Notes under the pieces: model-generated | Databases searched by the model: none | What the model saw: the letters and a program-made list of their open reading frames with translations, nothing else | What the model was told of the DNA's origin: nothing | Origin: an uncultured Sphingomonadales bacterium | Lineage (GTDB): Bacteria > Pseudomonadota > Alphaproteobacteria > Sphingomonadales > Rhodothalassiaceae | Reading direction: 5' to 3' | DNA length: 64,000 bases | NCBI GenBank assembly: GCA_947499155.1 | Contig: CANMND010000003.1 | Location: 62,001-126,000, forward strand | Part shown: positions 9,735-45,695 of the stretch, one piece after another | How the letters are laid out: each line of letters begins with the position of its first letter | How positions within the stretch are numbered: the first letter of the stretch is position 1 | Translations under genes and position numbers: made by a program

Positions 9735-9764
9735 TTGCAATTTTCAAACAAAGTCGCATATAAT
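9735..9764 (+). promoter_or_regulatory. Sigma70-type promoter of the Xre/RES toxin-antitoxin operon
   Basis: TTGCAA (9735-9740) and a perfect TATAAT (9759-9764) are separated by 18 bases, 40 nt ahead of the antitoxin ATG at 9804. This is one of the closest matches to consensus in the window. Confidence 0.7.
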
Positions 9765-9803
9765 GCAGTACTAATCAGCCCCTACAACACTGGAAGGTGC
9801 GTC

Positions 9804-10217
9804 ATGGCAATTGCACAAAACCGACAGCCCACCGCTGACAGCGCCGTGCCTGACGTCCTTTATGACAAAACCGTACAAGCGGCTGGCTTGCGGGCTTTTT
9901 TCGCGCTGGCGGACAAATGGGAGTTGAAGACAGCGGACGCCATGGCCCTTTTGGGCGACCCGAAAGAGCGCACCTATTATAACTGGAAGCAAGGGAAAAT
10001 CGGCTTCGTGCCGCCCGATACCATGCGCCGGATCGGCTATCTTTTGGGCATTCACAAAGCGTTGCGGATTTTGTATCGCAATCGGGATAATCTTTATGGC
10101 TGGATCCGGCAGCCCAACACCCGTCTTGGCGGCCAAAGTCCTCTGGAGCGCATGGTCAAAGGCGACATGGCCGATATCGCCTTGATCCGACAGATGCTCG
10201 ATGCCGTCAGGGGTTAA
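9804..10217 (+). CDS. Antitoxin of the MbcA/ParS/Xre family (DUF2384)
   Basis: A 137-residue protein. The middle resembles an Xre-like helix-turn-helix (TADAMALLGDPKERTYYNW) and the C-terminus carries the family hallmark GWIRQPNTRLGGQSPLERM. These antitoxins bind and neutralise a RES-domain toxin and usually repress their own operon. The start at 9804 is chosen because GGAAGG lies seven bases upstream; the frame is open further upstream. It overlaps the RES gene by 17 nt, so translation of the two is probably coupled. Confidence 0.88.
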   Translation: MAIAQNRQPTADSAVPDVLYDKTVQAAGLRAFFALADKWELKTADAMALLGDPKERTYYNWKQGKIGFVPPDTMRRIGYLLGIHKALRILYRNRDNLYGWIRQPNTRLGGQSPLERMVKGDMADIALIRQMLDAVRG

Positions 10218-10911
10218 GACACAAGGAGGGGGCGCTCCCCTGGCATGGACCCGGATGCGTCCCGCCTGGCGGACCATCGCATCCTGCTATCCGCCCATCC
10301 ACCTGTTCGAGGATATCGCAGCCCCCGGCGACTGGCCTCATCTCATGGCGCTTGAAATGGCGACAAACCCGCGTATCCGGCAAGAAACCGGCGACATCAC
10401 ACTTGTGCCGCCAGAACGATCTGTCAGCGGTCCCGGATCAAGTGTTGTGATGGCAGCATTCACCCATCCCAATCCCGATGGCGGGCGCTTTACCGATGGC
10501 ACCTATGGCGCCTATTACGCATCCGCCAGCCTTGAGACTTCGCTTACAGAACGTGTCGCCTTGCTGGAAGCCCATCTGGCGGCCTCCCCCCATGAGCGTG
10601 ACCAGATGGACCAGCGGGTCTATCTTGGTGCCGCCTTTGGGGACATGGCCTATATGCTTGACCTTGCCGCCCCCGAACTTGCCCCCGACAGCCATCAGGC
10701 CTCACAGGTCTTTGCCAAAGACGTGCGGGCAACAGGTGGTGACGGCATTGTCTATCCCAGCCTGCGCCATCAAGGCGGCTTCAATGTCGCGGTCTTCTGG
10801 CCGGACAGGGTGACGATTCCAATTATGGAGCGGCATGTGCAGTTCCATTATGACGGCCAGCGGATCAGCCGGTATTTCGACTTTCATCATGACCGCTGGA
10901 TCAGCCTTTAG
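10201..10911 (+). CDS. RES-domain toxin (NAD+ phosphorylase family)
   Basis: A 236-residue RES-family protein. The core shows GGRFTDGTYGAYYASASLETSLTE, covering the conserved Arg, Tyr and Glu of the family, and a later SLRHQGGFNVAVFWPDRV segment. Characterised RES toxins such as MbcT degrade NAD+ and stop growth; whether this one does so is inferred from the family and its antitoxin partner. The ATG overlaps the end of the antitoxin gene. The pair may act as a stress or phage-responsive toxin-antitoxin unit. Confidence 0.88.
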   Translation: MPSGVKTQGGGAPLAWTRMRPAWRTIASCYPPIHLFEDIAAPGDWPHLMALEMATNPRIRQETGDITLVPPERSVSGPGSSVVMAAFTHPNPDGGRFTDGTYGAYYASASLETSLTERVALLEAHLAASPHERDQMDQRVYLGAAFGDMAYMLDLAAPELAPDSHQASQVFAKDVRATGGDGIVYPSLRHQGGFNVAVFWPDRVTIPIMERHVQFHYDGQRISRYFDFHHDRWISL

Positions 10912-14046: not shown

Positions 14047-14217
14047 CGGGTGTGGGGTGGGTGATCTTAAGTGGATTGTGCATGGTGATACCGGGCGCAC
14101 GGCTTTGTAACATCCACCCCAGCGGCTCTCTGAGTTGTTTATTTTTGAAAAATTCTATAAAATACACCCACACTATACATATTTTTATATATCCATTTCC
14201 ACTCGCATGAGGACTGT

Positions 14218-16314
14218 ATGTCGTTAAACAAAGAGTGCGCATTAAAATATCTTCGTGACGCTATTGGCCGGGATGACGCACAATTCAAGGCTGGACAGTG
14301 GAAATCCATAAGTACTTTGGTAAATGACCGAAAAAGATCATTAGTTATTCAAAGTACTGGCTGGGGAAAAAGTATGGTGTATTTTACATCAACCAAGCTC
14401 TTAAGAGAACAAGGATGCGGCCCAACAATTGTGATATCGCCTCTTTTAGCGCTAATGCGAAATCAGGTGGAATCTGCCCAAAAACTTAATTTAAACGCAG
14501 TGACTCTGAATTCAACTAATACGAACCACCATGAGACAATTAAAAATAAGATACGTAAAAATGAAATTGACATACTATTACTATCACCAGAAAAATTGAA
14601 CAGTACTACATTCACTGAAGAATACTTAAGCCTTATCGCAAACAAGGTCGGACTGGTTGTCATTGATGAAGCGCACTGTATTTCTGATTGGGGGCATGAT
14701 TTTCGTCCCGATTATAAAAGAATCTCTCGAGTATTAAGCAGGCTTCCAAAAGGCATCCCCGTGCTCGCCACAACAGCGACTGCAAATAAAAGAGTCGAAA
14801 CAGATATTTTGGAGCAACTTGGGGAATGCACACAGATATCTCGGGGGCCATTGGCACGCCCCTCCCTTTCTCTGGACACAGTAAGAATCGATGATCCAGC
14901 AGCGCGGCTGGCTTGGCTTACCAAGAAAATTCGTAGTCTCAACTGTAGTGGGATAGTTTATGTTTTGACTCAGAGGGATGCTGAACGTGTTGCTGATTGG
15001 CTGGTACAGGAGGGCGTACAGGCCAAGCCTTACCATGGTGGTTTAAAGCAGGAACGAGAAGAGCTTGAAACGGCCCTAATTAACAACGAAATAAAGTGCT
15101 TAGTAGCCACAAGTGCCCTGGGTATGGGCTTTGATAAACCCGATCTTGGATTCGTCATTCACTATCAGGCACCTAATTCTGTAGTCCACTACTATCAGCA
15201 GGTTGGGCGCGCGGGACGTGGAATAAGCAAAGCCTATGGAATATTATTATATGGTGAGGAAGACGACCAGATACATCATTTCTTCCGCACGTCTGCCTTT
15301 CCACCAAAATGCCAAATACTGACGATTTTAAAGTACATAGAAGAATCTAAAAATGGCTTATCAGACAACGAGCTGAAATTAAGTCTCAATGTCCAAGACA
15401 GACACCTTAAAAGAATATTGGAATACTTGTCTGTTCAAGATCCTGCTCCAATTATTAAAAGAAATTCCAGATGGCTGCGCACACCGCATGAATTCGCTTT
15501 CAACAAAGAGTTAATCGAACACTTGACGAGAATTCGTGAATCTGAGTGGGAGGATATTCTTGAATACGGAAAAAAACAAAAGTGCTTGATGCAATTTTTG
15601 GGCGAAAAGCTTGATGACCCCCATGCCAAGACCTGTGGGAAGTGTTCCGTTTGTCTTAATAAGCCCTCTACTGAAAACGATTATGATAAGGAAACCTATA
15701 AAGCCGCCCTAATCTATCTGGGCTGTTCTGAAAATAAAATAGAACCACGTAAACAGTTTTCTAACCCAATGCTTGGCAAAGAATTTGGCGCTCTAAATTC
15801 CAAAATTCCTAAAAATCAACAAGCTGGAACCGGATATTGTCTATCCCGCTATGGCGAACCAGTTATTGGAAAACTTGTGAAGGAAGGCAAAATCGGAGGT
15901 CGGTTTAACCAAGAACTTGTGACCGCATCCGCCAGAATGATTCAAAGTCGCTGGACAGATGCGAAAAGCATAGAATGGGTTACGTGCATTCCCTCTAAGC
16001 GACACCCTAAACTTGTGGCTGATTTTGCGGAACGCCTTGCAATAGCGCTGAAGCTGCCTTTTCACCCTGCACTGGAAAAGGTCCAGGATAGACGCCCGCA
16101 AAAAAAGATGGAAAATAGCCATTTTCAATGCAGCAATCTATTGGGTGCTTTTGAGGCTAATATTCCTGATGATTTTAAGGGTAAGGATGTGTTGCTCATA
16201 GATGATATAGTAGACTCACGCTGGACCCTCACAATTGCCGCTTACCTCTTGAGGAAACAAGGCGCAGGTTTGGTATTCCCGTTCGCGCTTGCTTCCTCCG
16301 CACCCGGTGATTAG
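14218..16314 (+). CDS. RecQ-family helicase fused to a phosphoribosyltransferase-like domain
   Basis: A 698-residue fusion. Residues 1-480 form a RecQ helicase: Walker A QSTGWGKS near 45, DEAHCISDWGHDFRPDY near 149, QQVGRAGRG near 330, and RecQ zinc-binding cysteines around 455-480 (KCLMQF then CGKCSVC). Instead of HRDC domains, residues ~585-690 look like a type I phosphoribosyltransferase of ComF/Apt type: WVTCIPSKRHPKLV and VLLIDDIVDSRWTLT, the PRPP-loop equivalent with the acidic pair at 662-663. The gene is AT-rich (e.g. 16 G/C in 14521-14580) against GC-rich neighbours, so it was probably acquired. The DprA-like gene follows 10 nt downstream, recalling the PRTase/DprA pairing of ShosTA defence systems. 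Confidence 0.85.
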   Translation: MSLNKECALKYLRDAIGRDDAQFKAGQWKSISTLVNDRKRSLVIQSTGWGKSMVYFTSTKLLREQGCGPTIVISPLLALMRNQVESAQKLNLNAVTLNSTNTNHHETIKNKIRKNEIDILLLSPEKLNSTTFTEEYLSLIANKVGLVVIDEAHCISDWGHDFRPDYKRISRVLSRLPKGIPVLATTATANKRVETDILEQLGECTQISRGPLARPSLSLDTVRIDDPAARLAWLTKKIRSLNCSGIVYVLTQRDAERVADWLVQEGVQAKPYHGGLKQEREELETALINNEIKCLVATSALGMGFDKPDLGFVIHYQAPNSVVHYYQQVGRAGRGISKAYGILLYGEEDDQIHHFFRTSAFPPKCQILTILKYIEESKNGLSDNELKLSLNVQDRHLKRILEYLSVQDPAPIIKRNSRWLRTPHEFAFNKELIEHLTRIRESEWEDILEYGKKQKCLMQFLGEKLDDPHAKTCGKCSVCLNKPSTENDYDKETYKAALIYLGCSENKIEPRKQFSNPMLGKEFGALNSKIPKNQQAGTGYCLSRYGEPVIGKLVKEGKIGGRFNQELVTASARMIQSRWTDAKSIEWVTCIPSKRHPKLVADFAERLAIALKLPFHPALEKVQDRRPQKKMENSHFQCSNLLGAFEANIPDDFKGKDVLLIDDIVDSRWTLTIAAYLLRKQGAGLVFPFALASSAPGD

Positions 16315-16324
16315 ATCATTTGCC

Positions 16325-17302
16325 ATGAACAAGCTGTCCGAAGATACTGAAGTGATTCTTTTACTATGCTGCAGGTTGCCGGCAAACGTCGCTGCGTCCG
16401 AGTTGGCAAAGCCGCTATCCCATCAAGAATATGTTACACTTGCCAAATGGCTGTTACGCAGAGGACTAAGCCCCAAAGACCTATTAGGTCAGCGATTTAG
16501 TCAACATTCCGAAGCTCTCGAACAGGCTGATTTTGATATAAAAAGATTGCGCAACCTTTTGGGGAGGGGAGTTTTATTATCTTTTGCACTGGAGCGTTGG
16601 GACAGGTCCGGCATTTGGATTCTATCACGAGCTGACGCAACATACCCAAAGCGGTTTAAAAGAATACTGGGCCAAAAAGCCCCTGCAATTTTATATGGCG
16701 CTGGAAATGCCGATGCTCTTGACACTGGCGGCCTTGGGGTAGTCGGTTCAAGGGATATTTCTCCTGATGTGGAGGAATTCGTCTCACGCCTCGCCAGAGA
16801 TTCTGCCATGCAAGGCGTGAATATCGTATCTGGCGGCGCAAGAGGGGTCGATACTATTGCTATGCGCTCTGCTGCCCGGGCTGGTGGAAGCGTCATTGGA
16901 ATTCTTGCAGATGGTCTGGCTAGATCCATCACGACCAAAAGCTCCAGAGAAGCAATAACCGCAGGCAAGCTAACGTTAATATCGCCATACACACCAGAAG
17001 CAGGCTTTAATGCTGGCAATGCCATGTCGCGAAATAAATTAATTTATGCGGCCTCCGATGCTGTGCTGGTGGCACAAGCAGAGAAAGATAGGGGCGGAAC
17101 ATGGAGTGGTGCCATAGAATCCCTGTGCAATGCATGGTCTCCCGTCTTGGTTCAAACAGAATATCCCTCTGATGGACTTGATGCCCTTTGTGAGCGCGGT
17201 GCCCAGCCATTTGCATATGAAAACAAAAACAGCATTGTCGATTATCTCCATTCTTTGCGAATTTCTGAAAATCAAGCCGCCGTGCAAGTTCAACTTTTAT
17301 AG
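16325..17302 (+). CDS. DprA/Smf-like Rossmann-fold protein
   Basis: About 325 residues with a DprA-type Rossmann domain: YPKRFKRILGQKAPAILYG precedes GVVGSRDIS near residue 138 and GGARGVDTIAMRSA near 170, with AMSRNKLIYAASDAVLVAQA later. DprA proteins bind single-stranded DNA and load RecA during transformation; truncated or divergent DprA relatives also act as antitoxins in ShosTA modules. Here it follows the RecQ-PRTase gene by 10 nt and shares its low GC, so I read it as that gene's partner rather than the housekeeping dprA. The frame is open upstream to 16289, which would overlap the helicase gene; the ATG at 16325 is preferred. Confidence 0.82.
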   Translation: MNKLSEDTEVILLLCCRLPANVAASELAKPLSHQEYVTLAKWLLRRGLSPKDLLGQRFSQHSEALEQADFDIKRLRNLLGRGVLLSFALERWDRSGIWILSRADATYPKRFKRILGQKAPAILYGAGNADALDTGGLGVVGSRDISPDVEEFVSRLARDSAMQGVNIVSGGARGVDTIAMRSAARAGGSVIGILADGLARSITTKSSREAITAGKLTLISPYTPEAGFNAGNAMSRNKLIYAASDAVLVAQAEKDRGGTWSGAIESLCNAWSPVLVQTEYPSDGLDALCERGAQPFAYENKNSIVDYLHSLRISENQAAVQVQLL

Positions 17303-17452: not shown

Positions 17453-18469
17453 ATGGCAACGGCTTTGGAACAGACCTCTCCCCCGCAAGATAAACTCACC
17501 GGAACAGGCGATATCCGCCATGACTGGACAAGGGACGAGATTGCCGATCTGTTCAGCCTGCCGTTCATGGATCTGGTCCATCGTGCCGCCACCATCCATC
17601 GCCAGTTTCACGATCCCAACAAGGTGCAGTTAAGCCAGCTTTTGTCGATCAAGACCGGCGGCTGCGCCGAGGATTGCGCCTATTGTCCGCAATCGGCGAA
17701 ATACGCCGATGAAACTGGCATCAAGGCCGACAAACTGATGGCGCTGCAAGCCGTTATTGAAGACGCAAAAGCCGCAAAAGCTGGCGGGGCCGAGCGTTAT
17801 TGCATGGGGGCCGCCTGGACGCGCCTTAAAGACCGCGACCTGCCCGCCATTGAAGATATCGTGCGCGAGGTGAAGGCCCTTGGCCTTGAAACCTGCATGA
17901 CTCTGGGGATGCTGGAGCCGCATCAGGCCAGCCGTCTGAAAGACGCAGGGCTTGATTATTACAACCACAATATTGATACCTCGCCCGACTATTATGGCGA
18001 GATCATCACCACCCGCACCTTTGCCGAGCGGCTGGATACCCTTCAACATGTGCGGGATGCCGGAATACATGTCTGCACCGGCGGCATTATCGGCATGGGC
18101 GAGGGCCTGACCGATCGCGCCGGGATGCTGGAAGTACTGGCGACCATGACGCCGCACCCTGAATCCGTCCCCATCAATATGCTGGTTCAGGTGGAAGGCA
18201 CGCCGCTCGCCAAGGCCGGGACAGACAAACTTGATCCCCTTGAATTTGTGCGCACCATCGCCGTTGCACGCATCACCATGCCGCAAACGGTGGTGCGACT
18301 GTCCGCAGGCCGCGAAAGCATGAGTGACGAATGTCAGGCCCTGTGCTTTCTCGCCGGTGCCAATTCCATCTTTTATGGTGAAAAGCTGCTGACTACCGGC
18401 AACCCGGATTACAGCCACGATCAGGCCCTGTTTAAAAAGCTTGGCGTGACCCCTGCCGGGGCCGCTTAA
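17453..18469 (+). CDS. bioB: Biotin synthase
   Basis: Radical SAM enzyme that inserts sulfur into dethiobiotin, the last step of biotin synthesis. The CxxxCxxC cluster motif is CAEDCAYC at residues 71-78; further family blocks are [21 protein letters not shown] and [10 protein letters not shown], and the C-terminal [12 protein letters not shown]. The preferred ATG at 17453 gives 338 residues; an in-frame GTG lies at 17429. No other bio gene is in the window. Its GC-rich codon use marks the right edge of the AT-rich island. Confidence 0.96.
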
Positions 18470-39925: not shown

Positions 39926-39964
39926 ATTTCCAGATTAACAACATTTATGAAGTGGGGGGCTATC

Positions 39965-42900
39965 ATGACCTATCGTCTCGGATTTGACATGGGATCCAAT
40001 TCCCTTGGCTGGTGCGCCGTCCGTTTGGACAGTGACGGGGAACCGATCGACGTGCTTGATGCGGGCGTCCGAATACTGACGCCCAATGACGAAGCGGGCA
40101 AAGACCCACAATCGAAAGCATCCCTTGCCGCCAACAGGCGCGAGAAGCGTTCAGCCAGAAAACGCCGCGACCGTTTTCTTCGCCGCCAACAGCGCCTGAT
40201 GGAGCTTTTGATCAAGCACGGCCTGATGCCACAGGACAAGACTGCACGGAAAGAGCTGGAAAAGCTCGACCCCTATGTCTTGCGGGCCGAGGGCGTGACC
40301 AAGCCCTTGCCACCCCATGAATTCGGGCGGGCGCTGTTTCACATCAACCAGCGGCGCGGTTTTAAATCAAACCGCATTACCGATGCGGACGACACCGAAA
40401 AGGGAGCCGTCGCCGCCGGGAATAAAGCGCTGCAAGAGGCCCTTGAAAGCGAGGAAACCAGGCCCAAAAAAACCCTTGGTCAATTTCTTGCTGAACGCCA
40501 CAACCGCGACAGATACGGCAAGCGCACAAAGGATACGGTTATCCAGCCTGTACGCTTTCGACCCCGGACTGTGGGATCGAAAAATCTTTATGACCTTTAT
40601 CCGACACGCCAGATGACCGAGGAGGAAATTGACCGCTTGTGGGAAAAGCAATCACAAACAAACCCTGCCCTCACCGATGACCTGTTGACAAAAATCAAGC
40701 GCGTCATCGTTGATCAAAGACCATTGGAAAAGCCACTGGTGGGCAAGTGCACCTTCAATCCCAAAGAAGACCGTGCGCCAAGGGCCCTGCCCTTGTTCCA
40801 GCGCTACCGGATTTTGACAGAGACCGCCAATCTGATAGTGGAACTGCCCGGTGTTTCCAGACGCCCAATCAGCAAATCAGAGCAGAAATTGCTGGTGGGA
40901 TTATTGTGCCAGCGCGCCAGTACGGTGGATTTTACAACCCTGCGAAAGGCGCTGAAACTGCCTGATGAGGCAACGTTCAATCTTGAGCATGGCAAGCGCA
41001 AGGGCCTTGATCCCGACCTGACAGCCGCAAGGCTTGCCAACAAAAATATTCTGGGCAAGGCGTGGCGCGAAATCCCCATTAAGCGTCAAAATGAAATCGT
41101 CAAAAGTCTGCTGAATGAGGAGGACGAGGCAAAGCTGATCAGCTGGCTGACCGATGAGATGGGCTTTGATGAAGAGACCGCCACCAAAATGAGCGGCGCG
41201 CGTCTGCCACAGGGCCACGGCCATCTGGGAGAGACGATTCTTGGCCAGCTTGTGGAGGTGCTGGAGACTGACTCGACTGACTGTCCAGACCCCCAGACCG
41301 GTGAGATTTATGCACGGCCCCTTACCTATGACGAAGCGGTCAAAAGCATTGGCCACCACCATTCCGACATGAGCCCCAATGGGTTGCTGGCAGAACTGCC
41401 CTATTATGGCGATATCCTGCCGCGCCATGTCATTCAAAATCCCGACGCCCCGGAAACCAGCCAGGATTATCGCGGGCGGGTGCCCAATCCCACGGTTCAT
41501 ATTGCGCTTAATCAATTGCGGCAGGTGCTGAACTGCCTGATTCGCACCTATGGGCCACCTGCGGCCATCAACATTGAACTGGCCCGCGGATTAAAGCAGA
41601 GCCAAAAACAAAAAGACGAACAGACAAAAGCCAACCGTCAGAACGAAAAGGCCCGTGACGAATACCGGAAAATTCTGGATGAACTCGGCATGCCGGATAC
41701 CCATGGCAACATGCTGCTTTTGCGGCTTTTTCACGAGCTTCCGCCCGACGGACGTATCTGCGTTTATAGTGGCACGTCCCTGTCTATGGCCATGCTGACC
41801 ACGGGTGAGGTTGAAATTGACCATATCCTGCCCCGTTCACGGACGCTGGACGACAGTTTCATGAACAAGGTGCTGTGTACCCGCGCTGCCAACCGGGAAA
41901 AAGGCAACCGCGCCCCGGCAGAGGCGTGGTCCGGACAGAAACTGGCGGAAATTCACGCCCGCGCCAAACTGCTGTTGCCCAAAAAAGCCTGGCGCTTTGC
42001 CCCTGACGCCATGGAGCGGTTCGAGCGTGAAGGCGGCTTTTTGGAAAAGCAGTTGAAAGATACCCAGCACATGTCACGGCTGGCAAAAACTTATCTGGAG
42101 CATGTTTGCAAGGATGTCTTTGCTACACCGGGCAGGCTGACAGCCATGCTGCGCGGCAAATGGGGCCTTAATCGCCTGTTGCATGATCATAATCTGCACG
42201 GGGATGAGGCCCCCAAGCAGCGCAATGACCATCGCCATCATGCCATTGATGCCTTTGTCATTGCCTGCACTACCCGATCCCTATTGAACAGATTGTCTGC
42301 TGCGTCTGCACGCGCCGAATCGCTGCAACTGGACCGCTTTGCCCCCAGTGGCGAATTCCCCGACCCCTTCGATGGCTTTCGGGAACAGTTGAAAGCCCGT
42401 CTCGACACCATGATCATCAGCCACAAGCCTGATCATGGCATTGAAGGCCAGTTGCACGAGGAAACCGCCTATGGCGTGGTGGATGAAGAGATTGACGGCA
42501 AGCGGTTCAATCTGGTTGTACGCAAAAATATCGACAGCCTGACGGAAAAAATGGTCTGGCAGGTGCGGGACCAGACACTGCGCGAGGATCTGATCGCAGT
42601 GGTGGAAGAAGCAAAATACGCCACCACACAGGAGTACCGCGATACCGGCCAGAAGATCTCGGCCAATGACGTCAAAAAGGCCATAGCCACTGCCTTGGCC
42701 GACTATGGCCAGCGACACAATATCCGCCGCGTGCGCGTCCTGATGACGAAACAAGGGGTGCGCGTGATTGAACACGGCCCGGATGATCTGCCCGCCTACA
42801 AAAAATACAACAAAGCCTATGTGCCCGGCGGCAATTATAAGATAGAATTTTATGAGCATCCAAGTGGCAAGCTATTGAGCAAAAACTATACATATTTTGA

Positions 42901-43216
42901 CGCCAATAGGATGAAACTAGGCCAGAAAAATGGAAATATAATTACAGAAAGCAAACAAGAATCAGAGGCGAGATTACTTGTAACTCTTCATAAAGGAGAT
43001 ACAATAGAGGCTTGCATACAAGGAAGAAAAGGGCTTTTTATAGTTAGAAAGCTTGATCCAACTAATAATCGTATATACTGCGTCCCACAATATTACGCGG
43101 GCAAAGTAGATGATAAAATTTACATACAGGTTAGCTTTTCCAAATTCCGCGAATATAATCTAAAGCGAGTCAATGTAGATCCCATCGGACGGTTCAAGTA
43201 CCGGGAAGGATCCTGA
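39965..43216 (+). CDS. cas9: CRISPR-associated endonuclease Cas9, type II-C
   Basis: A 1083-residue Cas9 (ATG 39965 after a G-rich site). RuvC-I GFDMGSNSLGW with Asp8; Arg-rich bridge helix about 57-78; RuvC-II NIELARG with Glu538; HNH IDHILPRS with His620 and the NKVL...N motif; RuvC-III HHAIDAF with His759 and Asp762. All catalytic residues are present, so it should cut both strands. Length and absence of csn2 and cas4 fit subtype II-C. The C-terminal coding part about 42840-43180 (residues ~960-1070, much of the PAM-interacting domain) is AT-rich, unlike the GC-rich rest, suggesting replacement. cas1 begins 2 nt after the stop. Confidence 0.97.
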   Translation: MTYRLGFDMGSNSLGWCAVRLDSDGEPIDVLDAGVRILTPNDEAGKDPQSKASLAANRREKRSARKRRDRFLRRQQRLMELLIKHGLMPQDKTARKELEKLDPYVLRAEGVTKPLPPHEFGRALFHINQRRGFKSNRITDADDTEKGAVAAGNKALQEALESEETRPKKTLGQFLAERHNRDRYGKRTKDTVIQPVRFRPRTVGSKNLYDLYPTRQMTEEEIDRLWEKQSQTNPALTDDLLTKIKRVIVDQRPLEKPLVGKCTFNPKEDRAPRALPLFQRYRILTETANLIVELPGVSRRPISKSEQKLLVGLLCQRASTVDFTTLRKALKLPDEATFNLEHGKRKGLDPDLTAARLANKNILGKAWREIPIKRQNEIVKSLLNEEDEAKLISWLTDEMGFDEETATKMSGARLPQGHGHLGETILGQLVEVLETDSTDCPDPQTGEIYARPLTYDEAVKSIGHHHSDMSPNGLLAELPYYGDILPRHVIQNPDAPETSQDYRGRVPNPTVHIALNQLRQVLNCLIRTYGPPAAINIELARGLKQSQKQKDEQTKANRQNEKARDEYRKILDELGMPDTHGNMLLLRLFHELPPDGRICVYSGTSLSMAMLTTGEVEIDHILPRSRTLDDSFMNKVLCTRAANREKGNRAPAEAWSGQKLAEIHARAKLLLPKKAWRFAPDAMERFEREGGFLEKQLKDTQHMSRLAKTYLEHVCKDVFATPGRLTAMLRGKWGLNRLLHDHNLHGDEAPKQRNDHRHHAIDAFVIACTTRSLLNRLSAASARAESLQLDRFAPSGEFPDPFDGFREQLKARLDTMIISHKPDHGIEGQLHEETAYGVVDEEIDGKRFNLVVRKNIDSLTEKMVWQVRDQTLREDLIAVVEEAKYATTQEYRDTGQKISANDVKKAIATALADYGQRHNIRRVRVLMTKQGVRVIEHGPDDLPAYKKYNKAYVPGGNYKIEFYEHPSGKLLSKNYTYFDANRMKLGQKNGNIITESKQESEARLLVTLHKGDTIEACIQGRKGLFIVRKLDPTNNRIYCVPQYYAGKVDDKIYIQVSFSKFREYNLKRVNVDPIGRFKYREGS

Positions 43217-43217
43217 C

Positions 43218-44141
43218 ATGTACCCGCGCATTGTGGAAATCGCACAGGACAACCGGCATCTGTCGAAATACCGGGGCTTTCTGCTGGTCCATGAAGACAA
43301 GACAGAGCTGGCGCGGGTACCTTTGGATGATGTGGCGGCCCTGATTACCAGCGGCCATGGCATCACCGTATCCGCCAATCTGATAAGTGCCCTGGCCGAA
43401 CGGGGTGCGGCCTTTGTCTGTTGTGGATCCAATCACATGCCCACAGCGTTTTTATGGCCTGCAGACAGCCATTATCAGCAATCGGGCCGCATCCGGGATC
43501 AGGTGGCGGCCAGCAAGCCTCTAAAGAAACGCCTGTGGAGCCAGATTGTCTCGGCGAAAATCCGCCATCAGGGCGAAATCCTCGTCTCTCTTGGCCGCCC
43601 GGACCAGAATATCCTGCTGATGGCGCGGGGTGTGCGCTCTGGTGACCCCGATAATATGGAAGCGCAAGCCGCCCGCCGTTATTGGCCAGCCCTGTTCGGC
43701 GATGATTTCCGCCGTGACCGCACCGAGGCCGGCATCAACGCCATGCTGAACTATGCCTATGCGGTGCTGCGCGCCGGCACCTCCCGCGCCATCATGGGGG
43801 CGGGGCTTCATCCATCTCTCGGCCTGAACCACAGCAATCGCAACAACAGTTTTTTACTGGTGGATGATCTGATGGAGCCCTTCCGTCCCATTGCCGACCG
43901 GCTGGTGAAACAGCTTGTGGATGAGGGTGCAGATGGGGTGGAGCCACAAACCAAGCGGGCCATGGCGGCGCTCCTTGCAACAGACCTCAGCACTGACGAA
44001 GGGGTAAGCCCGCTTTTTCTGTGTCTCGAACGGTTGGCGTGGTCACTGGCCTGGTGTTTCAGTGGTGAAGCCCAAAAGCTTGAGATCGCGCGTCCGGCCC
44101 TGCCCTTGGAGTCGGGGCCACTGGACAGGGGGCCATCATGA
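43218..44141 (+). CDS. cas1: CRISPR adaptation endonuclease Cas1 (type II)
   Basis: A 307-residue Cas1 integrase. The catalytic triad is Glu148 (DNMEAQAARRYW), His205 (LHPSLGLNH) and Asp217 (LLVDDLMEPFRP). With Cas2 it inserts new spacers into the array. Starts one base after the cas9 stop and overlaps cas2 by 4 nt, so cas9-cas1-cas2 is one operon. Intact, so adaptation is plausible. Confidence 0.97.
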   Translation: MYPRIVEIAQDNRHLSKYRGFLLVHEDKTELARVPLDDVAALITSGHGITVSANLISALAERGAAFVCCGSNHMPTAFLWPADSHYQQSGRIRDQVAASKPLKKRLWSQIVSAKIRHQGEILVSLGRPDQNILLMARGVRSGDPDNMEAQAARRYWPALFGDDFRRDRTEAGINAMLNYAYAVLRAGTSRAIMGAGLHPSLGLNHSNRNNSFLLVDDLMEPFRPIADRLVKQLVDEGADGVEPQTKRAMAALLATDLSTDEGVSPLFLCLERLAWSLAWCFSGEAQKLEIARPALPLESGPLDRGPS

Positions 44142-44576: not shown

Positions 44577-44588
44577 AAGTGGGTATCT

Positions 44589-45612
44589 AGTATAGCCGCT
44601 CAGGAATTGAGAACCAACCGCAACAACAACATATGTTAAATTACTGATTCGTGTAGTATAGCCGCTCAGGAATTGAGAACCAACCGCAACCCGGGCGGCA
44701 AGACAGCGCTGCGATATCAAAGTATAGCCGCTCAGGAATTGAGAACCAACCGCAACGTGCTCAGCAATAGCGTCCACATGGGCTTGAGTATAGCCGCTCA
44801 GGAATTGAGAACCAACCGCAACATGACCTCGCGGCTGGTCTCTCTGCTCTCTAGTATAGCCGCTCAGGAATTGAGAACCAACCGCAACGAATGACGTGAG
44901 ATCATACGCTCAATCACAAGTATAGCCGCTCAGGAATTGAGAACCAACCGCAACGGGCAGCGCTCGCTCTCCCCGGATTTTAGTAGTATAGCCGCTCAGG
45001 AATTGAGAACCAACCGCAACCTGTCCACAGCAATCATGGAAGACGATGCAGTATAGCCGCTCAGGAATTGAGAACCAACCGCAACTTGACCACCATCAGT
45101 AGGGGTCGGGGGGGAAGTATAGCCGCTCAGGAATTGAGAACCAACCGCAACTGGCAGCGGTGGGCGGATATCTGGCGTTCAAGTATAGCCGCTCAGGAAT
45201 TGAGAACCAACCGCAACCGAGCTATACCACCAGCGACGCAAGACACGAGTGTAGCCGCTCAGGAATTGAGAACCAACCGCAACTGTAGTACTCATCCAAC
45301 TCGGCTTTAGTGAGTATAGCCGCTCAGGAATTGAGAACCAACCGCAACAAGTGGCTCCCGGCGATCATGAGAGACGATAGTATAGCCGCTCAGGAATTGA
45401 GAACCAACCGCAACTGGTGGACGCTCTGGGCGGGCTGGCGCAGCAGTATAGCCGCTCAGGAATTGAGAACCAACCGCAACCAGGCCGTGTGGCGAACTGC
45501 GACCAGGCGCAGTATAGCCGCTCAGGAATTGAGAACCAACCGCAACCTCCTCCTCAACCAGTTCCAACTCCTCCTCAGTATAGCCGCTCAGGAATTGAGA
45601 ACCAACCGCAAC
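44589..45612 (-). CRISPR. CRISPR array, 16 repeats and 15 spacers (type II-C)
   Basis: Repeats of 36 nt begin on the plus strand with AGTATAGCCGCTCAGG and end with ACCAACCGCAAC. Starts: 44589, 44655, 44721, 44787, 44853, 44919, 44985, 45050, 45116, 45182, 45248, 45313, 45379, 45445, 45511, 45577. Spacers are 30 nt, except those at 45021 and 45284, which are 29. Only the repeat at 45248 differs by eye (AGTGTA in place of AGTATA). Transcription on the minus strand is supported by complementarity to the tracrRNA, by promoter-like elements inside the repeat, and by the leftward terminator at 44551. Confidence 0.99.
45577..45605 (-). promoter_or_regulatory. Intra-repeat promoter (shown for the rightmost repeat, present in each)
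   Basis: Read on the minus strand the repeat contains TTGGTT, 17 bases, then TATACT at its very 3' end, so transcription would start in the adjacent spacer. The same arrangement is known from Neisseria meningitidis II-C repeats. In the variant repeat at 45248 the -10 becomes TACACT. Confidence 0.65.
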
Positions 45613-45695
45613 GAAGCGTGCGGGGCTGGCGATGCTGGACGGCGCAGGGAATCCAAAAATAGACTTGATCCAGTTTAGAATATATAGCTGGCCTG

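What the first reader, a model, noticed from the sequence alone, without database searches (positions are those of the whole stretch)
14218..17302. RecQ helicase-PRTase fusion paired with DprA in an AT-rich island: candidate ShosTA-like defence module
Seen: a RecQ helicase carries a C-terminal phosphoribosyltransferase-like domain (WVTCIPSKRH and LLIDDIVDSRWT) and is followed 10 nt later by a DprA-like gene. Codon use is AT-rich (16 G/C in 14521-14580, 23 in 14281-14340) against 36 of 60 in bioB at 17641-17700. Known: ShosTA is an anti-phage toxin-antitoxin pair of a PRTase-like ShosT and a DprA-like ShosA. Inference: here the toxin-like PRTase is built into a DNA-unwinding sensor, giving a larger relative whose helicase may detect phage or damaged DNA while DprA restrains or guides it. 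Adjacent PRTase and DprA domains with a helicase are unlikely to be chance.
Basis: partly seen in the sequence, partly recalled or inferred. Interest (0 to 1): 0.82.

Follow-up and report, generated by a model that had tools for sequence, protein, structure and literature searches.

The report
PsyrTA/RqlHI helicase–phosphoribosyltransferase toxin–antitoxin pair
Two adjacent genes form a recently acquired toxin-antitoxin pair of an already described kind (PsyrTA, also called RqlHI), in which a DNA helicase carries a toxic enzyme domain that its DprA-like partner keeps in check; it is a sound find but an ordinary member of a known family.

Summary
Window 14218-16314 (698 aa) is a RecQ-type helicase ending in a phosphoribosyltransferase (PRTase) domain; 16325-17302 (325 aa) is a DprA-like protein starting 10 nt later. 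The pair is AT-rich (45% G+C; GC3 0.40-0.41 against 0.63-0.66 for neighbours).

Both genes match PADLOC's PsyrTA models (PsyrT 912.7 bits, full length; PsyrA 368.3 bits). They are related gene for gene to E. coli RqlH-RqlI, where the PRTase domain is the toxic part and the DprA-like protein binds and neutralises it (PMC4670107). The link between shosTA, syrTA and rqlHI was drawn in 2022 (PMC9122126). ShosTA is a cousin without the helicase.

All 80 retrieved genome loci, from many phyla, have the DprA-like gene directly downstream, while only 5 of 384 other sampled genomes of the class carry the toxin domain. The genome has a separate housekeeping dprA and recQ. The residues tested in E. coli are intact. 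This antitoxin lacks the C-terminal HTH extension, like roughly a fifth of those surveyed. Phage defence by this locus is inferred, not shown. Verdict: new member of a known kind; low interest.

The parts
14218..16314 (+). psyrT/rqlH-like gene: RecQ-type SF2 helicase (about residues 8-480, with Cys4 zinc motif C456/C473/C476/C479) fused to a ComF/ShosT-type PRTase domain (about 490-698); toxin
   Evidence: PADLOC PsyrT 912.7 bits over 1-686/689; Pfam DEAD, Helicase_C, Pribosyltran; AlphaFold plus Foldseek
14359..14373 (+). Walker A motif GWGKS (residues 48-52; K51 corresponds to E. coli RqlH K49)
   Evidence: TGWGKS identical in the 83 of 86 sequences that cover it
14665..14676 (+). DEAH box (residues 150-153; D150 corresponds to E. 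coli RqlH D148)
   Evidence: D150, E151 and H153 identical in 86/86
16201..16227 (+). PRPP loop DDIVDSRWT (residues 662-670); D662, D663, S667, W669 invariant
   Evidence: 85/85 sequences covering it; the matching DIVD663 motif is required for E. coli RqlH toxicity (PMC4670107)
16325..17302 (+). psyrA/rqlI-like gene: DprA-like (SLOG) antitoxin, 325 aa, without the C-terminal HTH extension found in most relatives
   Evidence: PADLOC PsyrA 368.3 bits (1-306 of 398); AlphaFold pLDDT 94.8, Foldseek hits DprA and ShosA; short form in 16 of 80
14203..14217 (+). leader just before the toxin start, with a GAGGA Shine-Dalgarno-like stretch
   Evidence: sequence; inference

Best explanation
The two genes are a PsyrTA (= RqlHI) toxin-antitoxin operon, probably acquired horizontally by this bacterium. 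PsyrT is a RecQ-like helicase whose C-terminal PRTase domain is the toxic part. PsyrA, a DprA-like protein, binds that PRTase domain and, together with an active helicase, keeps it off. When the balance is upset (PsyrA lost or titrated, or aberrant DNA such as phage replication intermediates engaging the helicase or PsyrA), the PRTase acts on the PRPP/nucleotide pool or on DNA, causing DNA damage, SOS induction, filamentation and growth arrest, which would abort a phage infection. Shown here: identity, intact motifs, fold, pairing, sporadic distribution. Shown by others for the E. coli orthologues: PRTase-dependent genotoxicity, neutralisation and binding by the partner, operon. Inferred: trigger, chemical target and anti-phage action in this organism.
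For: PADLOC PsyrT 912.7 bits full length and PsyrA 368.3 bits. An E. coli plasmid copy is 49% identical, 66% positive over the whole toxin, and its best match in this genome is this locus (715 bits against 145 for the housekeeping RecQ); its partner finds PsyrA here (212 bits) over housekeeping DprA (40 bits). E. coli RqlH: PRTase deletion, D663A or DIVD663EVME abolish toxicity, the partner rescues and co-precipitates only when the PRTase region is present, genes form an operon (PMC4670107). All 80 genome loci have the DprA-like gene right after the toxin; toxin and antitoxin distances correlate (Mantel r 0.91, n = 80, best of 2000 shuffles 0.11). The PRTase fold matches ComF and ShosT, the partner's fold matches DprA and ShosA. 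Copies sit inside a type I restriction operon (E. coli plasmid) and a BREX operon (Acinetobacter); type I RM, PglX and DISARM proteins occur among the neighbours of others.
Against: No function was tested for this locus. Anti-phage activity of PsyrTA is thinly supported in the papers read: one E. coli copy gave no detectable protection and slowed growth (PMC12409345). The reaction catalysed by the PRTase is unknown. Relatives without an antitoxin are common in Gram-positives (PMC4670107; L032 and L033 here), so the helicase-PRTase can exist without the toxin-antitoxin logic. The PRPP loop departs from the usual pattern (R for G at 668), as in most relatives.
Confidence: 0.82

Rival explanations
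1. A DNA-repair or replication-fork helicase module: the helicase-PRTase and the DprA-like protein together process or resolve altered DNA, and toxicity on imbalance is a side effect, not the purpose.
For: The model proposed by Russell and Mulvey has the PRTase altering a nucleotide that the partner helps to resolve; helicase-PRTases without an antitoxin are widespread.
Against: Sporadic distribution (5 of 384 other sampled genomes of the class; none of 59 relatives), foreign base composition and placement in restriction/BREX operons fit defence better than housekeeping repair.
Confidence: 0.1
2. A selfish addiction module that mainly maintains itself or a mobile element, without defence benefit.
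For: Toxin-antitoxin behaviour is shown in E. coli (PMC4670107); copies lie on plasmids; one native copy showed no anti-phage effect.
Against: Here it sits in the chromosome-sized contig between a TPR gene and bioB with no recognised mobile-element gene beside it, and several relatives lie within defence operons.
Confidence: 0.06
3. A new, larger ShosTA variant, as first proposed.
For: ShosT structures are the second and fifth best matches for the PRTase domain and ShosA the third best for the partner; PADLOC ShosA scores 95.9 bits on the partner.
Against: PsyrA/PsyrT models score far higher (368 and 913 bits), no ShosT model is among the 25 matches shown, and the helicase fusion is the hallmark of PsyrTA/RqlHI.
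Confidence: 0.02

Closest known systems
RqlH-RqlI of extraintestinal pathogenic E. coli F11 (PMC4670107)
   Same: Same domain order, gene order, close spacing; equivalents of the helicase (K49, D148) and PRTase (DIVD663) residues present
   Different: About 50% identity to an E. coli orthologue; antitoxin here 325 aa, lacking the C-terminal HTH domain of the 400 aa RqlI, a region shown to be dispensable (1-320 rescues)
PsyrTA of Pseudomonas syringae (Sberro et al. 2013, as cited in PMC8790059; PADLOC PDLC03928/PDLC03927)
   Same: Matches to both models, the toxin over its full length
   Different: Partner matches only positions 1-306 of the 398-position PsyrA model
ShosTA
   Same: PRTase toxin plus DprA-like antitoxin; matching folds
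   Different: ShosT has no helicase; sequence similarity of the partner to ShosA is modest (95.9 bits)
ComFA/ComFC and DprA of natural transformation
   Same: PRTase fold closest to H. pylori ComF; DprA-like partner
   Different: Different helicase, separate genes, competence role; the genome has its own canonical dprA
Mycobacterium smegmatis RqlH (Ordonez et al. 2012, as cited in PMC5512222 and PMC4670107)
   Same: Helicase-PRTase fusion
   Different: Stands alone without the DprA-like partner

Membership tests
PsyrTA / RqlHI | RecQ-type helicase fused to a C-terminal PRTase, full length | tested here: met
   PsyrT model 1-686/689, 912.7 bits; fold of the C-terminus
PsyrTA / RqlHI | DprA-like partner immediately downstream, same strand | tested here: met
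   10 nt gap; PsyrA 368.3 bits
PsyrTA / RqlHI | Orthology by the published rule (at least 75% of the RqlH or RqlI protein aligned, at least 50% positives, reciprocal best match) | tested here: inconclusive
   Toxin: 66% positives over the full length, and best match of the E. coli copy here. Antitoxin: 58% positives over 302 residues, which is only about 65% of the longer E. coli protein because the C-terminus is missing here. F11's own proteins and the reverse search of a whole E. coli genome were not run
PsyrTA / RqlHI | PRTase residues needed for toxicity (DIVD motif) and helicase K/D residues | tested here: met
   DDIVD at 662-666, K51, D150 present; D662, D663, K51 and D150 invariant among relatives covering them
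PsyrTA / RqlHI | Toxicity of the helicase-PRTase, neutralised by the partner | not testable with these tools
   needs expression tests
ShosTA | Toxin is a PRTase without a helicase | tested here: not met
   698 aa protein with a full RecQ-type helicase
ShosTA | Antitoxin best matches ShosA | tested here: not met
   PsyrA 368.3 bits against ShosA 95.9 bits
Housekeeping RecQ | Equivalog score and RecQ tree position | tested here: not met
   recQ equivalog 296 bits, below the 640 cut-off; RecQ rows form a separate group with 100% support
Housekeeping DprA | Equivalog score; sole copy | tested here: not met
   TIGR00732 96.8 bits, below 191; canonical copy elsewhere
Dpd system (DpdF) | DpdF equivalog score with other Dpd genes nearby | tested here: not met
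   NF041063 163 bits, below 550; none of 33 other window proteins matched a Dpd model at 1e-40

The most novel reading that the evidence does not exclude
The short antitoxins (16 of 80 here, scattered over the tree, including this one; a few of them are cut by contig ends or frameshifts) are a functional subtype that works without the HTH domain, so that sensing of the trigger must lie in the helicase and the DprA core alone.
Probability: 0.25. Interest if true: 0.35.

Novelty: new member of a known kind. Interest (0 to 1): 0.2.

Why it matters
It adds a divergent (about 50% identical), probably recently acquired PsyrTA to a lineage in which none of 59 sampled relatives has one. The survey supports, on a wide sample, that the helicase-PRTase and DprA-like genes travel as a pair, in some cases inside restriction and BREX operons. 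The open questions about this family (what the PRTase does, what triggers it, whether it stops phages) were open before and are not answered here. The naturally short antitoxin could help separate restraint from DNA sensing.

Tried and rejected
Considered ShosTA membership: rejected on architecture and scores. Considered DpdF: the high PADLOC scores come mainly from the helicase part (residues 8-357 in the best match), and the NCBIfam DpdF cut-off is missed. Considered that the DprA-like gene is the housekeeping copy: rejected. Considered a truncated or frameshifted antitoxin: the ORF ends cleanly and about a fifth of relatives are equally short, so no sign of recent damage, though an old loss is possible. 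Looked for relatives in phage records: none in INPHARED with the C-terminal domain, two in IMG/VR, not followed further. A PsyrT family search of relatives rings in every genome because of shared helicase motifs; only the full-length match counts. The promoter and terminator scan gave nothing above chance of use here: promoter-like sites 5 found, 5.9 expected. Sberro et al. 2013 and Ordonez et al. 2012 are not in the library, and the 2025 ShosTA paper was not found in it; they are cited through other papers.

Full report
Observation. The two ORFs lie where stated: 14218-16314 (698 aa) and, 10 nt after its stop codon, a DprA-like gene with ATG at 16325 and stop at 17302 (325 aa). The automatic ORF list gives a 337 aa version from a TTG at 16289; the ATG at 16325 fits the conserved start of relatives. 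The quoted G/C counts are exact, and the pair's G+C (0.449) is third lowest of 610 equal windows. GC3 is 0.40 and 0.41 against 0.63-0.66 for neighbouring genes. The AT-rich part is only these two genes.

What the proteins are. Pfam finds DEAD and Helicase_C with a sub-threshold phosphoribosyltransferase match at 603-683, and DNA_processg_A in the partner. PADLOC matches the first as PsyrT over 1-686 of 689 positions (912.7 bits) and the second as PsyrA over 1-306 of 398 (368.3 bits); ShosA models score 95.9 and 23.1 bits on the second. RecQ and DprA equivalog models fall well short of their cut-offs. The C-terminal 214 residues were modelled from 71 sequences with mean pLDDT 91.8. Foldseek against the PDB ranks H. 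pylori ComF first, ShosT second and fifth, with PurF and other PRTases around and after them. The partner's model (pLDDT 94.8) matches S. pneumoniae DprA, then ShosA.

Literature. Russell and Mulvey (PMC4670107) describe exactly this kind of pair as RqlH-RqlI. Toxicity of RqlH needs its PRTase (deletion, D663A and DIVD663EVME abolish it). RqlI neutralises it and co-precipitates only if the PRTase region is present. The genes are an operon. Helicase-dead mutants lose viability in a way RqlI does not rescue, so the helicase seems to help hold the PRTase in check. RqlI 1-320, without the HTH, rescues nearly completely. Rousset et al. (PMC9122126) already grouped shosTA, syrTA and rqlHI as systems with DprA homologues as antitoxins. 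For ShosTA, a review of Pu et al. 2025 reports a PRTase/pyrophosphatase toxin disturbing purine metabolism and a DNA-binding antitoxin, triggered by T7 Gp0.7 (PMC12593503). PsyrTA is listed as abortive infection in P. aeruginosa work (PMC10855318), but one E. coli copy showed no detectable protection (PMC12409345).

Orthology. An E. coli plasmid copy (L029) is 49% identical, 66% positive along the whole toxin and 39% identical over 302 residues of the antitoxin. Its toxin finds this locus at 715 bits against 145 for the housekeeping RecQ; its antitoxin finds this gene at 212 bits against 40 for housekeeping DprA. L029 has K49 and D148 at the published numbers, while its DDIVD starts at 673, so it is a different allele from F11. 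It occurs in 53 of 5,426 complete E. coli genomes at 99% identity or more; other alleles were not counted.

Survey. They span Pseudomonadota, Bacteroidota, Acidobacteriota, Chloroflexota, Cyanobacteriota, Planctomycetota, Verrucomicrobiota and others. All 80 have a DprA-like ORF downstream, nearly all directly adjacent or overlapping, many with a 4-nt overlap; a few toxin ORFs are broken or cut by contig ends. This set is ranked by likeness to the query, so it under-represents orphans, which Russell and Mulvey found to be the rule in Gram-positives and which appear here as L032 (haloarchaeon) and L033 (Arthrobacter). Toxin and antitoxin distances correlate strongly (Mantel r 0.91). In 86 toxins TGWGKS, D150, E151, H153 and the PRTase residues D662, D663, S667 and W669 are invariant where covered. 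The zinc cysteines are present in 54, including this one, and missing in the rest, mostly one 29-row clade with full support. The window row pairs with L034, a proteobacterial MAG, on long branches.

Distribution and setting. None of 59 sampled relatives has a full-length PsyrT, and 5 of 384 other genomes of the class have the PRTase part. In the two congeners examined, bioB lies on the other side of the priA block and priA is directly followed by ggt, so this stretch is rearranged and the pair is absent. No integrase or recognised mobile-element gene stands beside it; acquisition is inferred from composition and distribution. Elsewhere the pair is found inside hsdMS-[pair]-hsdR on an E. coli plasmid and between pglX and pglZ of an Acinetobacter BREX operon. 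Among 105 neighbours from about 30 loci, type I restriction proteins, PglX and DrmMI recur, whereas among 33 other window proteins only a Cas9 and a Cas1 matched at the same threshold. The two sets differ in size and distance, so this is suggestive only.

Antitoxin length. The antitoxin here ends about 38 residues past the DprA core; 16 of 80 are short in this way, against 64 with a longer C-terminus. At least two of the short ones are cut by contig ends (L025, L043) and one (L031) is broken by an apparent frameshift, so the true share is a little lower. Because RqlI without its HTH domain works in E. coli, the short form is probably functional.

Mechanism. Most likely a PRTase toxin domain held off by the DprA-like partner and an active helicase; disturbance releases it, harming DNA or the nucleotide pool. 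Restraint and PRTase dependence are shown for the E. coli orthologue; trigger, chemistry and anti-phage action are inference.

Verdict. It is a new, divergent member of PsyrTA/RqlHI, of low interest.

Noticed in passing
window 39947-44141 and 44588-45620: Type II CRISPR-Cas locus: one Cas9-like and one Cas1-like protein among the window proteins scanned (ORFs 39947-43216 and 43218-44141 by size and order) and an array of 16 repeats at 65-66 nt spacing.
   Followed up: partly
window 9735-10911: Xre/MbcA/ParS-type antitoxin and RES-domain toxin pair, lying between priA and ggt, which are adjacent in two congeners.
   Followed up: partly
L031 6076-7430 (Sinorhizobium meliloti pSymB): The antitoxin gene next to an intact helicase-PRTase is unannotated and split into two overlapping ORFs (268 and 183 aa), as by a frameshift; real or a sequencing error.
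   Followed up: no
NZ_CP124405.1 (E. coli AVS0935), hit H25: An IS3-family element lies within the pair, with a separately annotated 'ComF family protein', much like the Shigella sonnei case in PMC4670107.
   Followed up: no
L029 and L030: The pair is nested inside a type I restriction operon on a conjugative E. coli plasmid and inside a BREX operon on an Acinetobacter plasmid.
   Followed up: partly
PsyrT alignment, window protein residues 456-479 (15583-15654): The zinc-binding cysteines are missing from a well-supported 29-row clade spread over many phyla.
   Followed up: partly
L032 (haloarchaeal plasmid): A helicase-PRTase without a DprA-like neighbour in an archaeon.
   Followed up: no
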